64,000 bases of DNA, from NCBI GenBank assembly GCA_943736015.1, contig OX031060.1, forward strand, positions 22,955,231-23,019,230, written 5' to 3'. Of this stretch, positions 122 through 13,400 are shown one piece after another. The notes beneath the pieces were generated by a model, which was not told the origin of the DNA, made no database searches, and saw nothing but the letters and a program-made list of their open reading frames with translations. Each line of letters opens with the position of its first letter. Position 1 is the first letter of the stretch. Both the position numbers and the translations under genes were made by a program. The DNA comes from Tridacna crocea. Taxonomy: Eukaryota > Mollusca > Bivalvia > Cardiida > Cardiidae.

Positions 122-3100
122 CTGTAAGGAAAAGAGACAATGTTAAGTTTCATACTGTAAATTTCTATTAAAATATGAAAAGTTTATTATGTTTGTTAAA
201 TTGAAAGTAGATCTAATTAGAGAACTGTACTAAATTAAGAAAATTTATTGGGCGGAGGATAATGTAAGGAAAAGAGAATATTATATTTCGTTTGTCTATT
301 TTTAGAAATGTTATGAGTTAAGAAATGACGTAATTTAACCTGGTGGGAATTATTTTCCCGTCACAGTGAATATTTTCCTCCTGCCGAAAATCTGGAACTA
401 CTTTTTACTGTCACTAGTTTTAAAAGTGGCATTCGTTGACAGAATAATCAGAGGAAATATAATATATAGTTTATTTCATCAGCTTGTGGTTAATATGGGG
501 AAATATTTGCCTCAAAAGAGAAAGGTCGGCGAAAATAACTCCAACCTTACGGCACTCGTTATTTTCGCATACCTTTCCCTTTTTAGGCAAATATTTCCCC
601 ATATTAACCACAAGCTGATGAAATAAACTCTATTTACTGTCACTTTTATTCCAGAATGCTAAAAAGGAATTATCAGTCCATGTGGATACTGTAAAGCGCA
701 CAACAGCGACTACAGCCAGTCTCATACAGTAGATTTTATGTGAATAAGACGGGATACAAAACAGAATGGAGAATGTATTCATTTTCATGCAGAGGCCTGA
801 TAAAACATATACTAGTACTTGTTATGCATTTCTTTTTTAAATAAACATTTCGAAATTACGAAATGTCATTTCGTACCTACGAAGTAATCAATTCGATTCG
901 TTGTCCAAAATATTGATTTCGTAATTGCGAAATAATGTTTCGTATTTATGAATAAAATTTGAGATATACATATTTGTAGAATTTCACTCCTGTTAAGGAC
1001 TTGTTAGAAATTTCAGTAACCTAGACCACAGGTACCTGACATGTCTGGTGTCATACAACCCTTCTATATGTCATACAACCCCTCTATATAGAGGGACATG
1101 TCAGGCACCTATGATCCAGACAATTAGAATCGTTGTTCACTGATATCTGTTTACAAAAACACACTACAAGCCATTAGTTTGTCTTTGTTTAGAACAAGAA
1201 GTTGGCCAGAATAGCTACCAAATTGACGAATCATATAAAAATTGGTTTCATTTTCAAGCGAAAGACCAGAAATGTGATTGGCTTAACCAATCAAATAGCT
1301 TATCATAGAATTAACGTTTAGAACTGAATATATATGTGTAGAATGGCGCGTGAGTGAATTCCTATTTACCTTTGGTGTTGGTTGACAAATTATTCCAGGT
1401 GAAGTTGGTGATGTTGGAGTCAAAGGGGATGCTACAGGGGTCAGAGGGGACGAGGGTGGGTCAACAGCACTAACGGTTACTCCATCATTCAATCGTTCAA
1501 ATGTATAAAACCCGGGAATGTATGGCGCCGGGAATGGCGCGGTGCCGTACAGGGAATTTAGCTCGCTAGTCTCTTTCAGGTACATTGCGACTTGGCGCCG
1601 GATGGTCGAGTTTCTGGGTCCTCGCTCGTGTTGTACCGCTGAAATGAGAAATGTGACCATACATATCGTTCAAATGCTGATTAAATTCAATGGACACAGT
1701 GATGCCTTTAGTAAAAAGAGTACGCCAAGTGTATATCGAGATCAGGGTGAGCTTCCGAGCAGTCTGATCTTAGTCTAGCCTCTTCGATACTAAATCAATG
1801 GCGATTTTAAGCACCTATGTGCAGATTTTAAATACAAAAGGGTGAATCCTAAATAATGCTTAATACTTCTGCTGTTACAGTGCAGTTAAACCTTTACCAC
1901 GCAAAGGTTGACGACCTTAGTAAAGAAGGATTTTGAAAACAGCGTTGGAAAGGGAGAAAACTGGTAACCAGCATTTTCTCCTTTTCCCACACTATTTTCT
2001 GACCTCATAGAGAAAAATTCAACCACATTAGCCACATTTAATTTGATGTCTGCAAAAGTCTAAAATTCTTTCGGTTGAGGTTTTAATAAAGAAAAAAATC
2101 TGTCCAACTTTTCCTATTCTATTAAATTTTCAAAAGATTACCGGAATTATGATAAAAATGAAATTGTCATGAATTTGACTTTTCTGACGATCGTAACAAG
2201 GTAATATCTTCACACTAGTCAAAATTGACGAGTAAATTATCAGCTCGTTTCGCTTTTTATTCTTCTTTCTATGATTTGATGTTCAAATTTCAATAGAGAC
2301 GTTAATATGTGTAATTTACAGAACGAAATTGCATACAATCATGTAATTTATTATAACTTGACTTCGTGATTTTTTCGTTTCCGTACTTTTTTTTCCTTTG
2401 ATGGTAATTTGTGTATTTGGTGAAATGAAACAGTCTGATTTGAAATCTTTTTAGAAGTGGACGAAAGAAACCTTTGAAAATATTTTTTGGGAATGGGAGA
2501 AAATGCTACTTTCAATTCAATACTTTTTTTTCCAACTTTCCAAAGGCATATTTCAGTATTTTAGTAACATTTAATAAATTTGTCGACTTCAAATACTTTG
2601 AATTATCTAGAACTTTTTTCTCGCCAGCTAAACAGGTAATTGCAGAAAAGCCGTGCTCTGGGAAAAGATGGATTAATGCATCTGCGAAAAGTATCGGCCA
2701 AGGTCAGCCTGCGCAGTCCGCGCAGGCTGACCTTGGCCGAAACTTTTCGCTATTGGTCAGTTTTCTGTTTGTCCAAGGACCAATCTACCTCATTATTATG
2801 TCGGTTATTGAAAAAAAGTTGCTTATATGGACCCATAATTATGTGATGATCTGGTTCAGTACCGTGTTTAACGGATATTTATTAATTAAGTATTAGATAT
2901 ATAGAAATTATACATGGAAACCGGTCCACGCGATACTAGTCACATTTATTATTTCGTATGGTTTACAGGTTGTGACCCCGGCGTAATACGGCTTGACCTC
3001 CGATCAATACAGTTGACCTTGTATCAATATTGATGACCCGCGACCAATACAGAAATCCTTGAATGTGATTGGTCAAAACTTCAGTTGCGTGAGCATCTGC

Positions 3101-6100
3101 GCTTACTTTTGACCAATCACGTTCAAGGATTTCTGTATTGGTCGCGGGTCATCAATATTGATACGAGGTCAGCTGTATTGATCGGAGGTCAAGTCGTATT
3201 AACCCATTACCACACAGGAGAATAATTTAGACTGGTCCAAATTGAAAGCATTTGCAGACGACAAAATAAAGGTGACTGAAAATTGAAATTTGTTCTGGGA
3301 AGGGTAGAACACACTAGGGGAAAAAGAGAAAATGCTGGTTACCAGCATTTTCTCCTTTTATCACAGGGTTTTCATAAGGCTTCTATCTCAGGGGCGTCAA
3401 AAGTAGGGATTGCGTGGTAATGGGTTAAGCCGGGGGCACGATCTAGTAAACTCTATTTTCACTTCTCTTAGGTTGTCATATTGATTCTGGGCCTACAGAT
3501 AATTCATAAAAATGTCATTGATCAAGTGATTTCGTATTGGCCAAGTTACAGGTCCTCGGCCTCGGGCCAATACGGCTAACCGCGGACCCGTAACTAGGCC
3601 AATACGAAATTAGTTGAGTAATAATATTATAGTATTAACCTCACTTTTGTTAGAGCGTGGCTCAGAGACTCTCGCTTTATAGGGTAAATACGTACGCTCA
3701 GTTTTATAAAGAGAAAAAAATTGAGTAACACTTTCACCCTTTTGGAAACCATTCATTTTTTTTTAAAATTTAATCCCAGAGGTAAAGGATTTTTAAAAAA
3801 AACATTGTGGCAGAAGGATAAAATGCTGATTTCCTTTCTCAACAATGTTTTCTACCCTCTCAAAGACAATTTTGAGTTTTTGATTAACATCTGATATGCC
3901 TTTCACAAATGCTGTCAGTCATTATCTATTAACGTATACCAAACGACAATATTTTGGGCTTGTCCAAATCGAAAGCATATGAAGACGACAAAATAAAAGT
4001 CACGGACTGAAAATTTGAAATTTGCTTTGTGAAAGGTAGAAAACATTGTGGGAAAAGGAGAAAATGCTGGTGTACCAGCATTTTCTCCTTTTGCCACAAT
4101 GTTTTCCAAAGGCTTCTTTCTCAGGGTCGTCAGAGGCTTAATTGTGTTGTCTGCAAATGCTTCCAATTTGATTACCAGCATTTTCTCCTTTTGCCACAAC
4201 GTTTTCTAAATGCTTCTTTTCCAGGGTCGTCAAAAATAGGAATTGTGTGGTAATGGCTTAAAGTTTGCTTATTTACTTGTCGATTCATAGTAGAGTATGA
4301 AGCTGAAAGGGTACTAAATGAGTGTCCAAATTAAGGAGAAAGGTGTACATTCAAAGAATGCCTTATTAAAGGTCTCTAAAAGAAGGGGGACGAAATGAGT
4401 TGGGTACGAGTAAACATCCTATTAAACACTCTACAATAGGGGATCCAGCGATACTTAAATATAACTTTTATATCAATTCTAACGGGGCACAATGATATGC
4501 ACTTGACTCTCCGAGCTACATAAAGAGATCCAAAGAAAAATGACTTTAATGGAAGTTGGACGCCCATAAATATTATACAGTACCCCAACAGAGCGCGTAA
4601 ACTTTTTACCAAAAGACAAAAAATGTCCTTATTCAAAGCTTAACCAGACCACAGTTAAAATGTGACTTAAACAATGGAATTTTCTGGCAAACTTTACAAA
4701 AGATTGTGAGAAAAGGAGAAGATGCTGATAACCACCTTTTTTTCCCATTTCTCGCGATGTTTTTTTTTTTATGATTGGTTACATGTAAGAAATACTAGAA
4801 AGCACAACTTACCATCTTTGTTCATTCCAGCTTCGAGACACTTCTTTAGACGACAGGCTCGGCACTGGTTTCTGTGAGTTTTGTCCACGGGACACATGGT
4901 CTGTCCCCGAGACTTACATATATACTGTCTGTTTCTTCGGATAGATCTCTGTAATACATATGGATGGATGAATGGATGGATGGAAGTTTGGTTGGGTTAT
5001 CGGCATTTTTTCCTTTTCTCACATACATTTGTACTTTTATAAATCAAGATCAAACTACAATCTTCTCCGGGCCCTTAAAAGTATCAAGAACTTTCAATGA
5101 AGGTTAAAAGTGAAATGATCAAATAGATATAGGTGGGCAAACAGTTGCAGTAAAGAACCATCGACTCACTTATTACCTTGTACAATAAGTATAGGCCACA
5201 TTTGGCAACTTAAAACGACTATGTGAAAGAAAACTTTTGAATTCACGGTGGGAATAGGAACTGACTTTATCATGGAAAAAAAAAAGAGTTGCTCCTATGA
5301 GCAATTGGTAGTTTTATTCACAATATCTTGACCGGTATTCAGTGATTTGCGTCGACTTCCTGTTACAAGCGGTTGTGTTCAATGCTGAAAATTTGTTCGA
5401 GCGGTATACAATCAAAAGAGAGAGATAAAATATGATAATAGTTACCTTGAAGAATCCTGCACACCTGAAATGAAAATCGAATATAAAAAAGATCAGTACA
5501 TGTTTCGTTACGTCGTCATCATCATCATCATCATTTTTGACGCCCCTGAGAAAGAAGCCTGTAGAAAACGTTGTGGGAAAAGGAGAAAATGCTGGTAACC
5601 AGCATTTTCTCCTTTTCCCACAATGTTTTCTACCCTTCATAAAACAAATTTCAAATTTTCAGCCACTTTTATTTTGTCGTCTGTAAATGCTTTCGATTTG
5701 GACAAGCCTAAAATATTGTTGCTTGGTAATGAATTAATTAATCACATTTCGATTCAAACTCAGCCTTTTTCAGTACCAAACGACATAATGTTAGACTGGA
5801 TTTGCAGTTGACAAATAAATTGTTCCTCAAAATATGGACTTTGTATCAACCAGAGTAGAAAGCTGCTGACCATGTTTGTAAACAATGTGACAAATTTATT
5901 CCTATGGAACAATTTCTGTTTGTGCCACAAAGACTTCGCATAATAGGCTATTCGTCTTTGAAACTTTATTTTTTTCATTATGAACTTGAAAATCCATATT
6001 CTACAATCGCGTTTACAAACTGCTTCAAATTATCTAGATATATGGCGAGCAAAACGCGAAAACAGACCTTCGGACATTTGCGTAAAGTGTCGTTTCGGAT

Positions 6101-9100
6101 CAGTCTGCGCAGCTGGCGCAGGCTGATCCGAAACTACACTTTCCATTTGTAGATATTATTTAAATCTTTAGCAAGTCTACCGAAGCACAAAATCTAATAT
6201 AGCCGTAAAGTGGCGTCTCGGATAAGCGTGTGTGCGGACTGCGCAGGCTGATCCGAGGCGACACTTTACGCAAATGTCCGAATGCCCCTTTTCGCATGTT
6301 GTAAATCATATACATGCAGTAGATAATGTATTTATGTACTTTAAAACCTGAGTTTCAAATTTCTATCAAAATCTTTCTAACTATCTATTTCAGTTGGCAA
6401 ACAGTTCGTACATTTATTTTTTAACATGGTTTATCACTTATGACTGAAGTTTTCATCGACAAATAGACAGATGTACCACGCTACAGTACAGTACCACGCT
6501 ACAAAATGTAAGAATTTAGACCCAATTTGGACAAAAATTGAAAATGATTTCAAATGACAAACTGACTGTGGTTTAAATGATTGGTGTTGTCTCTTAAAGG
6601 TTAGAAAACATTGTGGAGAAAGAAGAAAACGCTGATGCCCAGCATTTTTTCCTTTTCAAACAACATTTTATAAGGTTTTCTTTCTCATGGTCGTTTATAC
6701 TCGTTATTGCATTGTAAAGAGTTTAATATGCGTACCCAAGGTTAAAAAATGAAAGTAACTGCTTGATAAACAACAATAAAAGCAAAAACAACAAATCTCT
6801 ACGCATTTTCTGTTGCAATCCCATTTACATGTATATCTAAAAAAGAAATCCTAAATCCACAAGAGTTGTTTACCAATCAGAAGATGGAAGCTCAGATATT
6901 GAATTTATCACTAGGTAGCATTTGACATCACATACGATTGGATGCTGAGTGCTGTTGAATACTTATGGCGAACGTTACTTATTGGTTATCTCTCTCTACC
7001 AAAGTATCCTGCCTTTCCGCGACTCTCAGTGTAAAGCTTTTAAAAACGCCTTTGGAAAAGGAGAAAGTCCTGTTAAACAGCATATGCTCTTTTTCCAGCG
7101 ATGGTTTTTATCCTTTCAATGACAAATTGTCGTTGGTAAAGGGAGAAATGCTAATTACGAGCATTTTTTTCCCATGATGATTTCAAATGCCCTCTGCCTT
7201 AAGTTAGAGAATACACGAGATTTTACGATAGAGAGATTAAAATGAGTAAAGGAACTTACCCGTCACAAGCATAAATGCCGTAATGTTTGCCGGAAGAATG
7301 GTCTTGACAGACTTTACATGGTATATCCATCAAAATCCGACCTGAAAGTAGAATAACGATTTCATTATGTCAAAACTCTACATAAAAGTAAAAGTAAAGT
7401 GCTAATATGTCGAAATCTGAATAATATCAATGTGCAAGTATATATCAAAATCCGACATGTTATATAGGTGTCATCATGTCGAAAATCCGACATGATATGT
7501 ATGTGTCATTATGTCGAAAATCCGACATGATATATGTTTTAGAATGTCATAAAGTAATTACACATGATAAACAATGTGTTACTGTGTCGGAAATCCAACA
7601 TGATGGGAATATTTGAATATGTTGAAAATCTGTTACGCTGCAACTTGTCGATAATCCGACAATCAATGTAGTAATAAGCTAAAATATGACACGTTTTTAA
7701 TTTGTTATATCAAAATCCAATATGATGTTAATGTGTTACTTTATCAATGTGCTATACGAGCTCACGTCAAAATCTGAGATAATATCAGACTACTTATTAC
7801 GTCTAAATCCGACATGATTTTGATATGTTATTATACCAAACTCTCACGTCATATTGGTGCGTTATTATGTCAAAATTTAAATAAAATTCAAAGATAAGGC
7901 GATAAAGTAAAGTACTATTTTGTTTTCGTATACTTTGCATAACATGAATCGTAAATATCTCGTCTAATTTTCTATGGGTATACGCAATTTGATGCTCGAA
8001 CAAATGACAAAATATTAGACTAGACAAATTCGACAAGATGGAATTTAATGTAAGGTGGTCCAAGTGACGAAATGTGTCTTTGGTAGGGTAGGAACAGTGT
8101 GGTAATCATTCACCAATCTGAATTCTAGTTCTAATAGTAGTGGAAGAACAGGCTTTGACGCTTCTATTTCTGCCAAAGACAATTGGGTCCAGGAATATAT
8201 AAAAAGAAGAGTTAAAAATAGCCAATCAACTGGCAAAGACAGTTTGTCTCATTTATTTGTAGGACTCGCGTCGAAAAAAGAGATTTGACTCGGTTAGTGC
8301 CTCAAGCCGATTTTATTTAATACGGTCTGTCTGTCCACGCGTTCCTTTGCTTTCTTAAATCAGTAATTAAAGCAGCACCCTGCCAAAGCCACTGGCTGCT
8401 TTCCCGTCTCCGCATAAACAAATTCGAGACCATCTAGGGTATCTTTGTGCAAAGACTTTGGTGAATCCTTGGCAAAAGTTTTAACTCATTACCAAATGAC
8501 AAAATTTTAGGCTTGCCCAAATCGAGAGCATTTGCAGACAACAAAATAAAACAAGACTAAAAAAAAAAACTTTATCTTTGAAAGTGTCAAAAACATTGTT
8601 GGAAAAGGAGAAAATGCTGGTAACCAGCATTTTCTCCCTTTCCCACAATGTTTTCTAAAGGCTTCTTATTCAGGGTCGTAAAAAATAGGGATCGTGTGGT
8701 AATTGGTTAAATCTGAGCTAGGGCTGGGAGTAAAAATCCGTAGATTACCGGTTCTGCGCTTTACCACCAACCTAAAGGGCCTTGGGTACCCAGAACTTGG
8801 ATGTCAACAAGTACCGATTTTGTTGACCACCGCTATGTGTCAAACCTGTTTATTAACCGTATTGTTAGATCAGATCAAAGTCGGGATTGTCCACCTCAGG
8901 TGTCCAGCAGAGAATGGTCAAATGATAAAATAGCCACAAGATTTTGTTTACGTAATAATTTGAACGACATCCCCTAAGTCGAAAATCTTAATCCGTGCTA
9001 ATTTGAATGAATAACTCCGCTCTTCCTAAAAGGCGACAACAACGATGACGAAAACCCGACAAAAATTTAACCCTAACCCGTGTCAGAATTTTTACCTCTT

Positions 9101-10460: not shown

Positions 10461-10496
<36 letters not shown>

Positions 10497-13400
10497 TATT
10501 CAAAGTTTACTGGCTGAGAGAGAGAGAGAGAGAGAGAGATTTTCAAAGTTTATTGGCTTTCAGAGACGATAAAGCTAAAGTGTCATCAGAAACATCTATT
10601 TTCTTTTTAAGTCGAACCCGCAAATCTTTGAGACAGTATAATATCGGCGTTACTTACAGTCACACGCGCAAGCATACGTTACTTGCGTCGGATCTTTTAA
10701 ATTCTTTGTTGCCTGACACTTTCAAGTCACTACCGCATGTATAGTTACGACCCTAATGAACAAGTACACGCTCTTTTGCACAGCGTTTCTTTTCCTTTCC
10801 AAGGCAAACCTTATTCATTGAACTATTACAAATTGTCGTCCGGAATTGAACTCGAGGTGTTTAAGTCTTAAGTTATTTTTTCTGATAAGATTAATATGTT
10901 CAGCCGACAGCAGGACGAAAATTCTGTGAGGATTTTATTAACTTTAACAACTTATAGCAAACGGTCGCAACAAAACACAATGTCAAATAAATAATTCATA
11001 ATCGCAAGCCATTGTCTTTGGAATAATTTCCTATAACATCCGGTAACTTCCCTGATAACGATAGACTTTGCATTAGTTCATTAGAGTTATTGCCCTTTAA
11101 AACCTCACCGGAAGTCACGTGCCCTTCATTGGTCTTTTATGAAATCACCTGTCTGAGTAGTTTATTTGCAATAAAACCAATGACAAATTATTCCTTTATC
11201 GATGAGGAATGAAGTCGTTTTATTATTCAGTGTTTAAAGATTGGTCTGACTACAACATTTACCGACTGTGGCAAAGCTAATTCCCATTACCAAACGACTG
11301 GTCCAAATTGAAAGCATTTGCAGACGATAATATAAAAGTGACTGAAAATTTGAAATTTGTTTTCGTGAATGGTAGAAAACATTGCGGGAAAAGGAGAAAA
11401 TGCTGGGTAGCCAGCATTTTCTCCTTTTCCTGCAATGTTTTCTAAAGGCTTCTTTCTCAGGGGCGTCAAAAGTAGGGATTGTGTGGCAATGGGTTAAGGT
11501 CTCGATCCCAATCAAAATTGACATACATTTTATTTGTTATAATAAAAAGTGGTAACTTGACATTTTTAACAAACTTCTTTAACTGCATGTTCAACTAACA
11601 GTTTTCAGAGAGCATCGGAACTTTTTTTTTTATTCTTTTCTTTACTTTATAAGTTTCTTTGTAGTTTTGCCATATATCGCAAAGCAATTTTTCGTACAGA
11701 TAAATTTGCCTTAAACTAGATTACTTTAACTGAAATTTCAACAGATATGAATGAAATAATTTAAGCAGTGAAGTTCCAGGCTAAACTCGGAACCAATCAA
11801 AAAGAGAACAAGATTCCGGAAGTCGTGTAGTATTTCCTTCTGACGTTATCCTGGCAGCCATTCTGATTTATCGGGCAATAAGGAAAAACGGCACTAACTT
11901 ACAGTAGCGGTTTGTGCTTAATTAAAGTGAAAACATATCTCTGTAGTCCTATTAACCGACAGGTGAAAACATAAAACAATTTGCTTTAATTTCCTCCCGA
12001 AGAGACTAAAAGGTTGAGCAGAAATATCGTGCTTCAATAATGAATGTTTGAAAATCGATGTCTCAGATGGACCAGTCTCCGACTGCTTCCCGCAGTCTGA
12101 GATTTGTCCTGAGTTGTAAGACACTTAGTTTGATAAACAAGCGCCTGGAGTACTTGATCTACCGGAAGAACTTCGGGACTGGAAAGTCGTTACACGGAAG
12201 CAAACAGCCAATACAAACTTGTAGATTACACAAACTGCGTCTGTTTAATCATTTACCAAGCTACCCTCTGTTTTTCATTACTCATTTGGAAAAGGACCGT
12301 TAACAAAACTTAGAAAACAGAGAAAAACGCTTATATCAAACTTTTCTCTTTTTTTCTCAATACGCGTTTTTTTTTTTACATTCAAGATATTTACCATTAA
12401 TTTCGCCAAACCAACGTCAACAAATGCTTGTACAATCTGTACCAAAGTTTGACCCCGGGTAAAGAGTAAACCCATTACCACACAATCTTTACTTTAGAAA
12501 ACATTGTGGGAAAAGGAGAAATGCTGGTAACCAGCATTTTCTTCTTTTCCCTACATGTTTTCTACCATTCACAAAACAAATCTCAAATTTTCAGTCACTT
12601 TTATTTTGTCGTCTGCAAATACTTTCAATTTGGACCTGTATATAATTTTGTCGTTTGGTAAAGAGTGAAAGATTATCTACCTAATACACTTAAAGACTAC
12701 CCTTGGACACGTCAAAACCTAATTTTGTCGCTTGTCGTTGCCTTATTGTGTGATCACGGGTTGCATTTTCATTTCCTCTCTTTAACTTTGAACTTTATTG
12801 GTATGTATTAAAGGGGCATTTAAACAGATTTCGTTTTGCCAGTGTTTTAAGAAAAATCTCAACAACGACTGCTGGTTTTTATTTCAATGCAGGAGTGTTT
12901 TATGATTTAAACTTAAATAGAAGAACATACGAAAAAATACGAGAAATTACAGACTATTTTTACATTAAAAATTCTAGAGCGTTAGTAACGGTAAAGCCAA
13001 ATATAGATACAAGCCATGCTCTGATAAAAGGGGGATAACAGCATCTCCGTGATCCATGAAACCATACGGTTTTATGGATCTATGAAAAATATGAGGTACT
13101 TTAAGCTGCAGAAAACTAACTACTTGCAAAATATATGATCCGTTTTTCACTGAGCATGGTTCATTAGTTGGTTGGTTGTATTGGGGTTGAACGCCACTTT
13201 AACAGCTATGGTCATATCATGGCGGTCAGTGACGCACATGGGTTTCCTGGCTATCTCATACCAGTACTAACACTACTTTCTTTCCAAAGCCACCGACTAC
13301 TTTTCTCACTTGCTTCAGGAGAAGTGAGAGGCGAAAATATGCCAGAAAGAAAGTTTGCCTCAACCTCGAACTCACAACCACCAGTTTATGAGTCCGACAC

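What the first reader, a model, noticed from the sequence alone, without database searches (positions are those of the whole stretch)
5446..5464. 19-nt microexon encodes the DNA-recognition P-box of a tailless/TLX receptor
The sequence shows a 19-nt exon between good splice sites that supplies the last zinc ligand of finger one and the CAGFFK part of the recognition helix. Phases match exons 2 and 4. Skipping it shifts the frame and abolishes DNA binding, so its inclusion is a potential on/off switch for the receptor. Exons this small are missed by most gene predictors.
Basis: partly seen in the sequence, partly recalled or inferred. Interest (0 to 1): 0.78.

Follow-up and report, generated by a model that had tools for sequence, protein, structure and literature searches.

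The report
Tiny exon in tailless receptor gene
A developmental gene-control protein of an animal has the heart of its DNA-reading part encoded by an exon only 19 bases long, which looks real and is easy for gene finders to miss, but is most likely an ordinary, always-included piece and not a switch.

Summary
On the minus strand, 5446-5464 is a 19-nt exon (GTGTGCAGGATTCTTCAAG) between exon 2 (7260-7341) and exon 4 (4813-4948) of a nuclear receptor gene. Joined in frame, the exons give one complete zf-C4 domain (Pfam 6.9e-29). Without the 19 nt the frame shifts, a stop follows, and only the first third of the domain remains. It scores best of 380 possible 3-60-nt exons in that interval, and the scan found no other CxGFFK in the window. 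Chance expectation of such a coding match with splice dinucleotides is about 2e-8. The receptor meets five published diagnostics of the tailless/TLX group.

The switch interpretation is not supported. The length is not a multiple of three, the splice sites score high (rough matrices), and no UGC lies within 100 nt upstream. This fits published features of constitutive microexons better than those of regulated neuronal ones. The microexon supplies three of five P-box residues; D19 and two bases of the G20 codon come from exon 2. No RNA or second animal genome could be examined, so inclusion and conservation are untested. Verdict: a real, probably constitutive microexon; a new member of a known kind.

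The parts
7260..7341 (-). Exon 2 (82 nt): [26 protein letters not shown] + GG of the G20 codon; three of four zinc ligands of finger one
   Evidence: acceptor tttcag, donor CGG|GTAAGT
5465..7259 (-). Intron 2 (1795 nt)
   Evidence: from exon ends
5446..5464 (-). Microexon 3 (19 nt): last base of the G20 codon, then C A G F F K; fourth zinc ligand of finger one and start of the recognition helix
   Evidence: rank 1 of 380 candidate 3-60-nt exons
4949..5445 (-). Intron 3 (497 nt)
   Evidence: from exon ends
4813..4948 (-). Exon 4 (136 nt): [12 protein letters not shown]...LEAGMNKD + G, second zinc finger
   Evidence: its ORF alone matches zf-C4 profile positions 27-70
1639..4812 (-). Intron 4 (3174 nt)
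   Evidence: from exon ends
1370..1638 (-). Exon 5 (269 nt): [20 protein letters not shown]...QPTPK, hinge region; no Pfam match of its own
   Evidence: in frame with exon 4; (1286-1669: 0 families)
5561..5633 (-). Long hairpin (34 bp) of a repeated palindromic element in intron 2, ending 96 nt before the microexon; no role shown

Best explanation
Shown from sequence: 5446-5464 (minus) has all the marks of a 19-nt internal coding exon of a tailless/TLX-type nuclear receptor gene; with it the DNA-binding domain is complete, without it the frame breaks. Inferred: the exon is included in essentially all mature messages (constitutive microexon) through its high-scoring 3' splice site and fair 5' splice site. 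It supplies C21, A22 and G23 of the P-box plus F24 F25 K26, so finger one can fold and, with D19 from exon 2, the receptor should prefer AAGTCA half-sites like other members of the group. Skipped messages would encode a truncated fragment with an incomplete first finger and would probably be degraded.
For: Exact junctions and phases with a 168-codon open spliced frame. Best splice pair of 380 in the interval, and the only CxGFFK among five hits of a relaxed six-frame scan of the window. Pfam zf-C4 2-70/70, 6.9e-29, with the exon; 2-22/70, 30.4 bits, without; the exon 4 ORF alone matches 27-70, so the microexon fills the gap. Group diagnostics D19, A22, I29, K38 and a 9-residue D-box match those published for Tll/TLX (rules; tests). 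Constitutive features: most microexons are multiples of three in length (passage of PMC7392893) and frame-breaking ones are poor isoform makers; constitutive microexons have stronger splice sites and about 81% of microexons in the human RNA survey were constitutive (passages of PMC4317164); no TGC within 100 nt upstream, against the UGC enrichment of fly eMIC-dependent exons.
Against: No RNA, protein or second animal genome was available. The 5' splice site (GTAACT) scores only 3.85 against 7.37 for exon 2 and 5.72 for exon 4, though above exon 5 at 3.54. A CTCTCTCT tract starts at intron base 22 downstream and could bind a PTB-like regulator. An AG inside the exon allows an 11-nt frame-breaking form scoring nearly as well (7.96). 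Lack of upstream TGC is weak evidence, since exon 5 lacks it too. The number of constitutive microexons falls sharply with size (passage). 35 of 300 random pieces hold an equally good splice pair.
Confidence: 0.85

Rival explanations
1. The microexon is a regulated switch: skipping makes a non-binding fragment or an unstable message and so lowers receptor activity in some cells.
For: Skipping shifts the frame; the modelled part then has 60 codons and a stop 33 nt before the exon 4/5 junction, with a further junction after exon 5, so a degraded message is plausible; CTCTCTCT tract just downstream and a fair donor.
Against: Length not a multiple of three; no TGC within 100 nt upstream, no GCATG within 150 nt on either side; high-scoring 3' splice site, unlike the weak ones of fly eMIC exons. 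No RNA evidence.
Confidence: 0.07
2. The exon is longer or uses the internal AG: alternative forms 5410-5464 or 5446-5456 are the real ones.
For: Both are possible AG...GT pairs; 5446-5456 scores 7.96 against 8.38.
Against: 5446-5456 breaks the frame; 5410-5464 has a very poor donor (pair score -2.0) and would insert 12 residues between K26 and R27.
Confidence: 0.03
3. The locus is a decayed duplicate, not an expressed gene.
For: Exon 1 and the ligand-binding domain were not found in the window.
Against: Four exons intact with consistent phases and no stop; the gene runs towards the low end of the window, beyond which the rest is expected.
Confidence: 0.03
4. The receptor is another NR2E member (dissatisfaction, PNR/fax-1, Hr83 or NHR-236 type).
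For: The groups share most of the domain (48 of 85 residues identical among the NR2E members compared in PMC2225407, passage).
Against: D-box of 9 residues against 11 (Dsf) and 8 (NR2E3); D19 against N19 of NR2E3; K38 against I38 of Hr83; CDGCAG against CDGCRG of NHR-236.
Confidence: 0.05

Closest known systems
9-nt microexon of plant AP2-domain transcription factors (PMC8831610, passages seen)
   Same: A tiny exon encodes the core of a DNA-binding domain and is missed by annotation (none annotated in rice MSU7 for AP2 genes, says the passage).
   Different: 9 nt, so skipping keeps the frame; unrelated domain and kingdom. Here 19 nt and frame-breaking.
9-nt microexon of plant invertases (PMC8831610, passages seen)
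   Same: A tiny exon carries part of a central functional motif (D-P-N).
   Different: An enzyme; 9 nt, so skipping keeps the frame.
Extra exon between P-box and D-box in flatworm HR96b receptors (PMC8363021, passages seen)
   Same: Two introns close together inside a nuclear receptor DNA-binding domain.
   Different: There the extra exon comes with an unusual domain length and, in parasitic species, a changed zinc finger; here the zf-C4 match is of normal length.
Mammalian NR2E1 (TLX), nine exons (PMC7104222 and PMC2040186, passages seen)
   Same: Orthologous receptor group; nine exons leaves room for the same layout.
   Different: Exon sizes in the DNA-binding domain were not in the text seen, so presence of the microexon there is undecided.
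Neuronal eMIC/Srrm-dependent microexons (PMC8797185, passages seen)
   Same: Very short internal exons.
   Different: Those are regulated, in flies with UGC motifs and very weak 3' splice sites; neither is seen here.

Membership tests
Tailless/TLX group (NR2E1 subclass) | zf-C4 DNA-binding domain | tested here: met
   Pfam PF00105 6.9e-29, profile 2-70 of 70
Tailless/TLX group (NR2E1 subclass) | Asp at position 19 and Ser/Ala at position 22 | tested here: met
   D19, A22; rule from PMC2225407 passages
Tailless/TLX group (NR2E1 subclass) | Ile at position 29 and Lys at position 38 | tested here: met
   I29, K38; rules from passages
Tailless/TLX group (NR2E1 subclass) | D-box of nine residues (vertebrate and Drosophila Tll), not 8, 11 or 12 | tested here: met
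   CKSRGQTMC, 9 counting both Cys; rule. That the paper counts both Cys is my reading.
Tailless/TLX group (NR2E1 subclass) | Ligand-binding domain of TLX type | not testable with these tools
   Expected beyond the low end of the window; no ligand-binding match in eight of the nine listed minus-strand ORFs below 1283 (ORF 888-983 not given; ORFs under 30 aa and open-ended ones not listed)
Dissatisfaction (NR2E4) | D-box of eleven residues | tested here: not met
   9 residues
PNR/FAX-1 (NR2E3) | Asn-19 and D-box of eight | tested here: not met
   D19 and 9 residues
Constitutive microexon | Internal exon of 51 nt or less with standard splice sites | tested here: met
   19 nt, AG...GT, acceptor 98th and donor 99th percentile of minus-strand AG and GT by recalled matrices
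Constitutive microexon | Included in 90% or more of transcripts | not testable with these tools
   no RNA data
eMIC-dependent neuronal microexon (fly type) | UGC near a weak 3' splice site | tested here: not met
   no TGC in 100 nt upstream; acceptor at 98th percentile

The most novel reading that the evidence does not exclude
The 19-nt exon is skipped on purpose in some cells or stages, so that splicing of one tiny exon turns a neural and terminal patterning receptor off at the protein or message level.
Probability: 0.07. Interest if true: 0.6.

Novelty: new member of a known kind. Interest (0 to 1): 0.3.

Why it matters
Gene models that miss the exon would yield a broken tailless/TLX receptor, and the protein without the exon still passes Pfam's cut-off (30.4 bits against 21.1), so the error would not be obvious. 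If the exon is shared across animals, its two flanking introns are an old landmark for tracing nuclear receptor genes; that is untested here.

Tried and rejected
A second P-box-like exon (mutually exclusive partner): none seen; the relaxed six-frame scan of the window gave five hits and only this one has CxGFFK. Exon 1: three ATG-to-donor candidates upstream, none convincing; the scan required a donor score of 4 or more and at most 60 codons. Ligand-binding domain below 1283 on the minus strand: eight of the nine ORFs of 30 aa or more listed were scanned (888-983 was not); the only hit was a weak Polo_box_4 match, E 0.13, below its cut-off. Related loci: genome contigs (11 pattern stretches, none confirmed) and viral contigs (10, none confirmed), as expected for an animal gene. 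PDB: 88 distinct sequences matched, best a COUP transcription factor 1 chain; no TLX chain among the 60 shown. A proline codon in human NR2E1 exon 4 (PMC2040186 Table 7, passage) fits both possible layouts and decides nothing.

Literature: ten searches. Microexon with nuclear receptor and tailless: 0 papers. Microexon with nuclear receptor, DNA-binding domain and zinc finger: 2, neither on this by title and abstract. The other lists were capped: 20 of 7,442, 20 of 114, 20 of 50, 4 of 4, 12 of 13, 1 of 1, 15 of 40, 10 of 13. In the passages seen, none gives the size of TLX/tailless exons in the DNA-binding domain; figures and supplements were not seen. Passages only were seen of PMC3513187, PMC8363021, PMC2040186, PMC3517510, PMC4070562, PMC4388693, PMC1847479, PMC7104222, PMC8831610, PMC7392893, PMC2225407, PMC8797185 and PMC4317164; all others only as search listings.

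Full report
What is there. The window carries, on its minus strand, four consecutive coding exons of a nuclear receptor gene: exon 2 at 7260-7341 (82 nt), exon 3 at 5446-5464 (19 nt), exon 4 at 4813-4948 (136 nt) and exon 5 at 1370-1638 (269 nt). All eight exon ends have AG or GT. Spliced, they read 168 codons without a stop: [98 protein letters not shown].... The ligand-binding part is expected beyond base 1 of the window; eight of the nine minus-strand ORFs of 30 aa or more listed below 1283 were scanned and show no such domain.

Is the microexon real? Three lines agree. First, splice signals: of 380 AG...GT pairs that could make an exon of 3-60 nt in the 2311 nt between exons 2 and 4, this one scores highest (8.38), and it is first of the 69 that keep the frame without a stop. 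The matrices were approximate and recalled, and the score alone is not rare: 35 of 300 random minus-strand pieces of the same length, some of which can overlap this very exon, hold a pair at least as good. Second, coding content: the pair that splice score picks encodes exactly the missing CAGFFK. The expected number of C[A/S]GFFK runs in the interval at local composition is 3.7e-5, or 2.2e-8 with the AG, the split-codon G and the GT required too. A relaxed six-frame scan of the window gave five hits and only this one contains CxGFFK. Third, domain logic: the spliced protein matches zf-C4 from profile position 2 to 70 of 70 with 100.6 bits; the form without the exon matches 2-22 only, and the ORF of exon 4 alone matches 27-70.

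What it encodes. Counting from the first zinc cysteine, exon 2 gives C1, C4, C18, D19 and two bases of G20; the microexon completes G20 and gives C21, A22, G23, F24, F25, K26; exon 4 starts at R27. So the microexon holds the fourth zinc ligand of finger one and three of the five P-box residues, not the whole P-box. Residue 22 is said to contact position 2 of the half-site, and Ser or Ala there has been proposed to allow AAGTCA in place of AGGTCA (PMC2225407, passages); D19, from exon 2, is the other specificity residue (same passages).

Which receptor. The sequence meets each published group mark that I tested: D19, A22, I29 (rules in PMC2225407), K38 (PMC3517510, passages), and a D-box of nine residues, the length given for vertebrate and Drosophila Tll against eleven for Dsf, twelve for NHR-67 and eight for NR2E3 (tests). 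The NHR-236 group has CDGCRG (PMC8363021, passages), not CDGCAG. No tree was made and the ligand-binding domain is out of reach, so the assignment rests on the DNA-binding domain.

What skipping would do. Exon 2 joined to exon 4 gives 60 codons of the modelled part and then a stop 33 nt before the exon 4/5 junction; exon 5 adds a further 269 nt before its own donor. By the usual exon-junction rule (recalled), such a message should be degraded; this is inference. Use of the internal AG (11-nt form) also breaks the frame. Retaining intron 3 would add 43 residues after K26 and stop.

Switch or constitutive? I found little that supports regulation. Microexons are mostly multiples of three in length (PMC7392893, passage); this one is not. 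In a human RNA survey about 81% of microexons (51 nt or less) were constitutive, and these have stronger splice sites, shorter introns and U2AF-like tracts (PMC4317164, passages). The acceptor here is at the 98th percentile of all AG on the minus strand and the donor at the 99th of all GT. The two flanking introns, 1795 and 497 nt, are shorter than intron 4 (3174 nt). Fly eMIC-dependent exons have very weak 3' splice sites and UGC near them (PMC8797185, passages); here no TGC lies within 100 nt upstream, although exon 5 lacks it too, and no GCATG lies within 150 nt on either side. Points the other way: the donor GTAACT scores 3.85, below exons 2 and 4 and just above exon 5; a CTCTCTCT tract starts at intron base 22 downstream; a 34-bp hairpin of a repeated element ends 96 nt upstream (the 241-nt piece folds at z -5.85); and the number of constitutive microexons falls sharply with size. 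I put the constitutive reading at 0.85 and the switch at 0.07.

Known or new. Tiny exons inside DNA-binding domains are a known kind: the 9-nt exon in the core of the plant AP2 domain, unannotated in rice MSU7, is the nearest parallel seen (PMC8831610, passages). Most flatworm HR96b receptors have an extra exon between P-box and D-box (PMC8363021, passages). Whether TLX/tailless genes elsewhere share this exon I could not learn: the mouse gene has nine exons (PMC7104222, passage) and the human gene was sequenced with nine exon assays (PMC2040186, passage), which is compatible but not proof. The listings, several of them capped (see Tried and rejected), showed no report of it; the library lacks most subscription papers, so this is weak evidence of absence.

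Limits. The genome search did not answer in eight tries. No metazoan genome or RNA collection was open to me; one scan each of bacterial/archaeal and viral contigs found no confirmed relative.

Noticed in passing
1967-61372, throughout: A palindromic element (half unit GGAAAAGGAGAAAATGCTGGT) occurs as 86 half units at up to 4 mismatches in 64 kb (41 plus, 45 minus); 64 of the 86 form 32 facing pairs, four of these pairs in introns 2 and 4 of this gene.
   Followed up: partly
5561-5633: One copy folds into a 34-bp hairpin ending 96 nt upstream of the microexon; z-score -5.85 for the 241-nt piece.
   Followed up: partly
6080-6150 and 6200-6280: A second repeated type with GTAAAGTG(T/G)CG...GCGCAGGCTGATCCGA, seen by eye; looks like another palindromic element.
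   Followed up: no
7450-7818: Scattered ATGTCGAAAATC and ATCCGACATG(AT) units (four exact ones at 7450, 7476, 7511, 7807) upstream of exon 2.
   Followed up: no
10463-10539: GA-type simple repeats, runs at 10463-10494 and 10516-10539.
   Followed up: no
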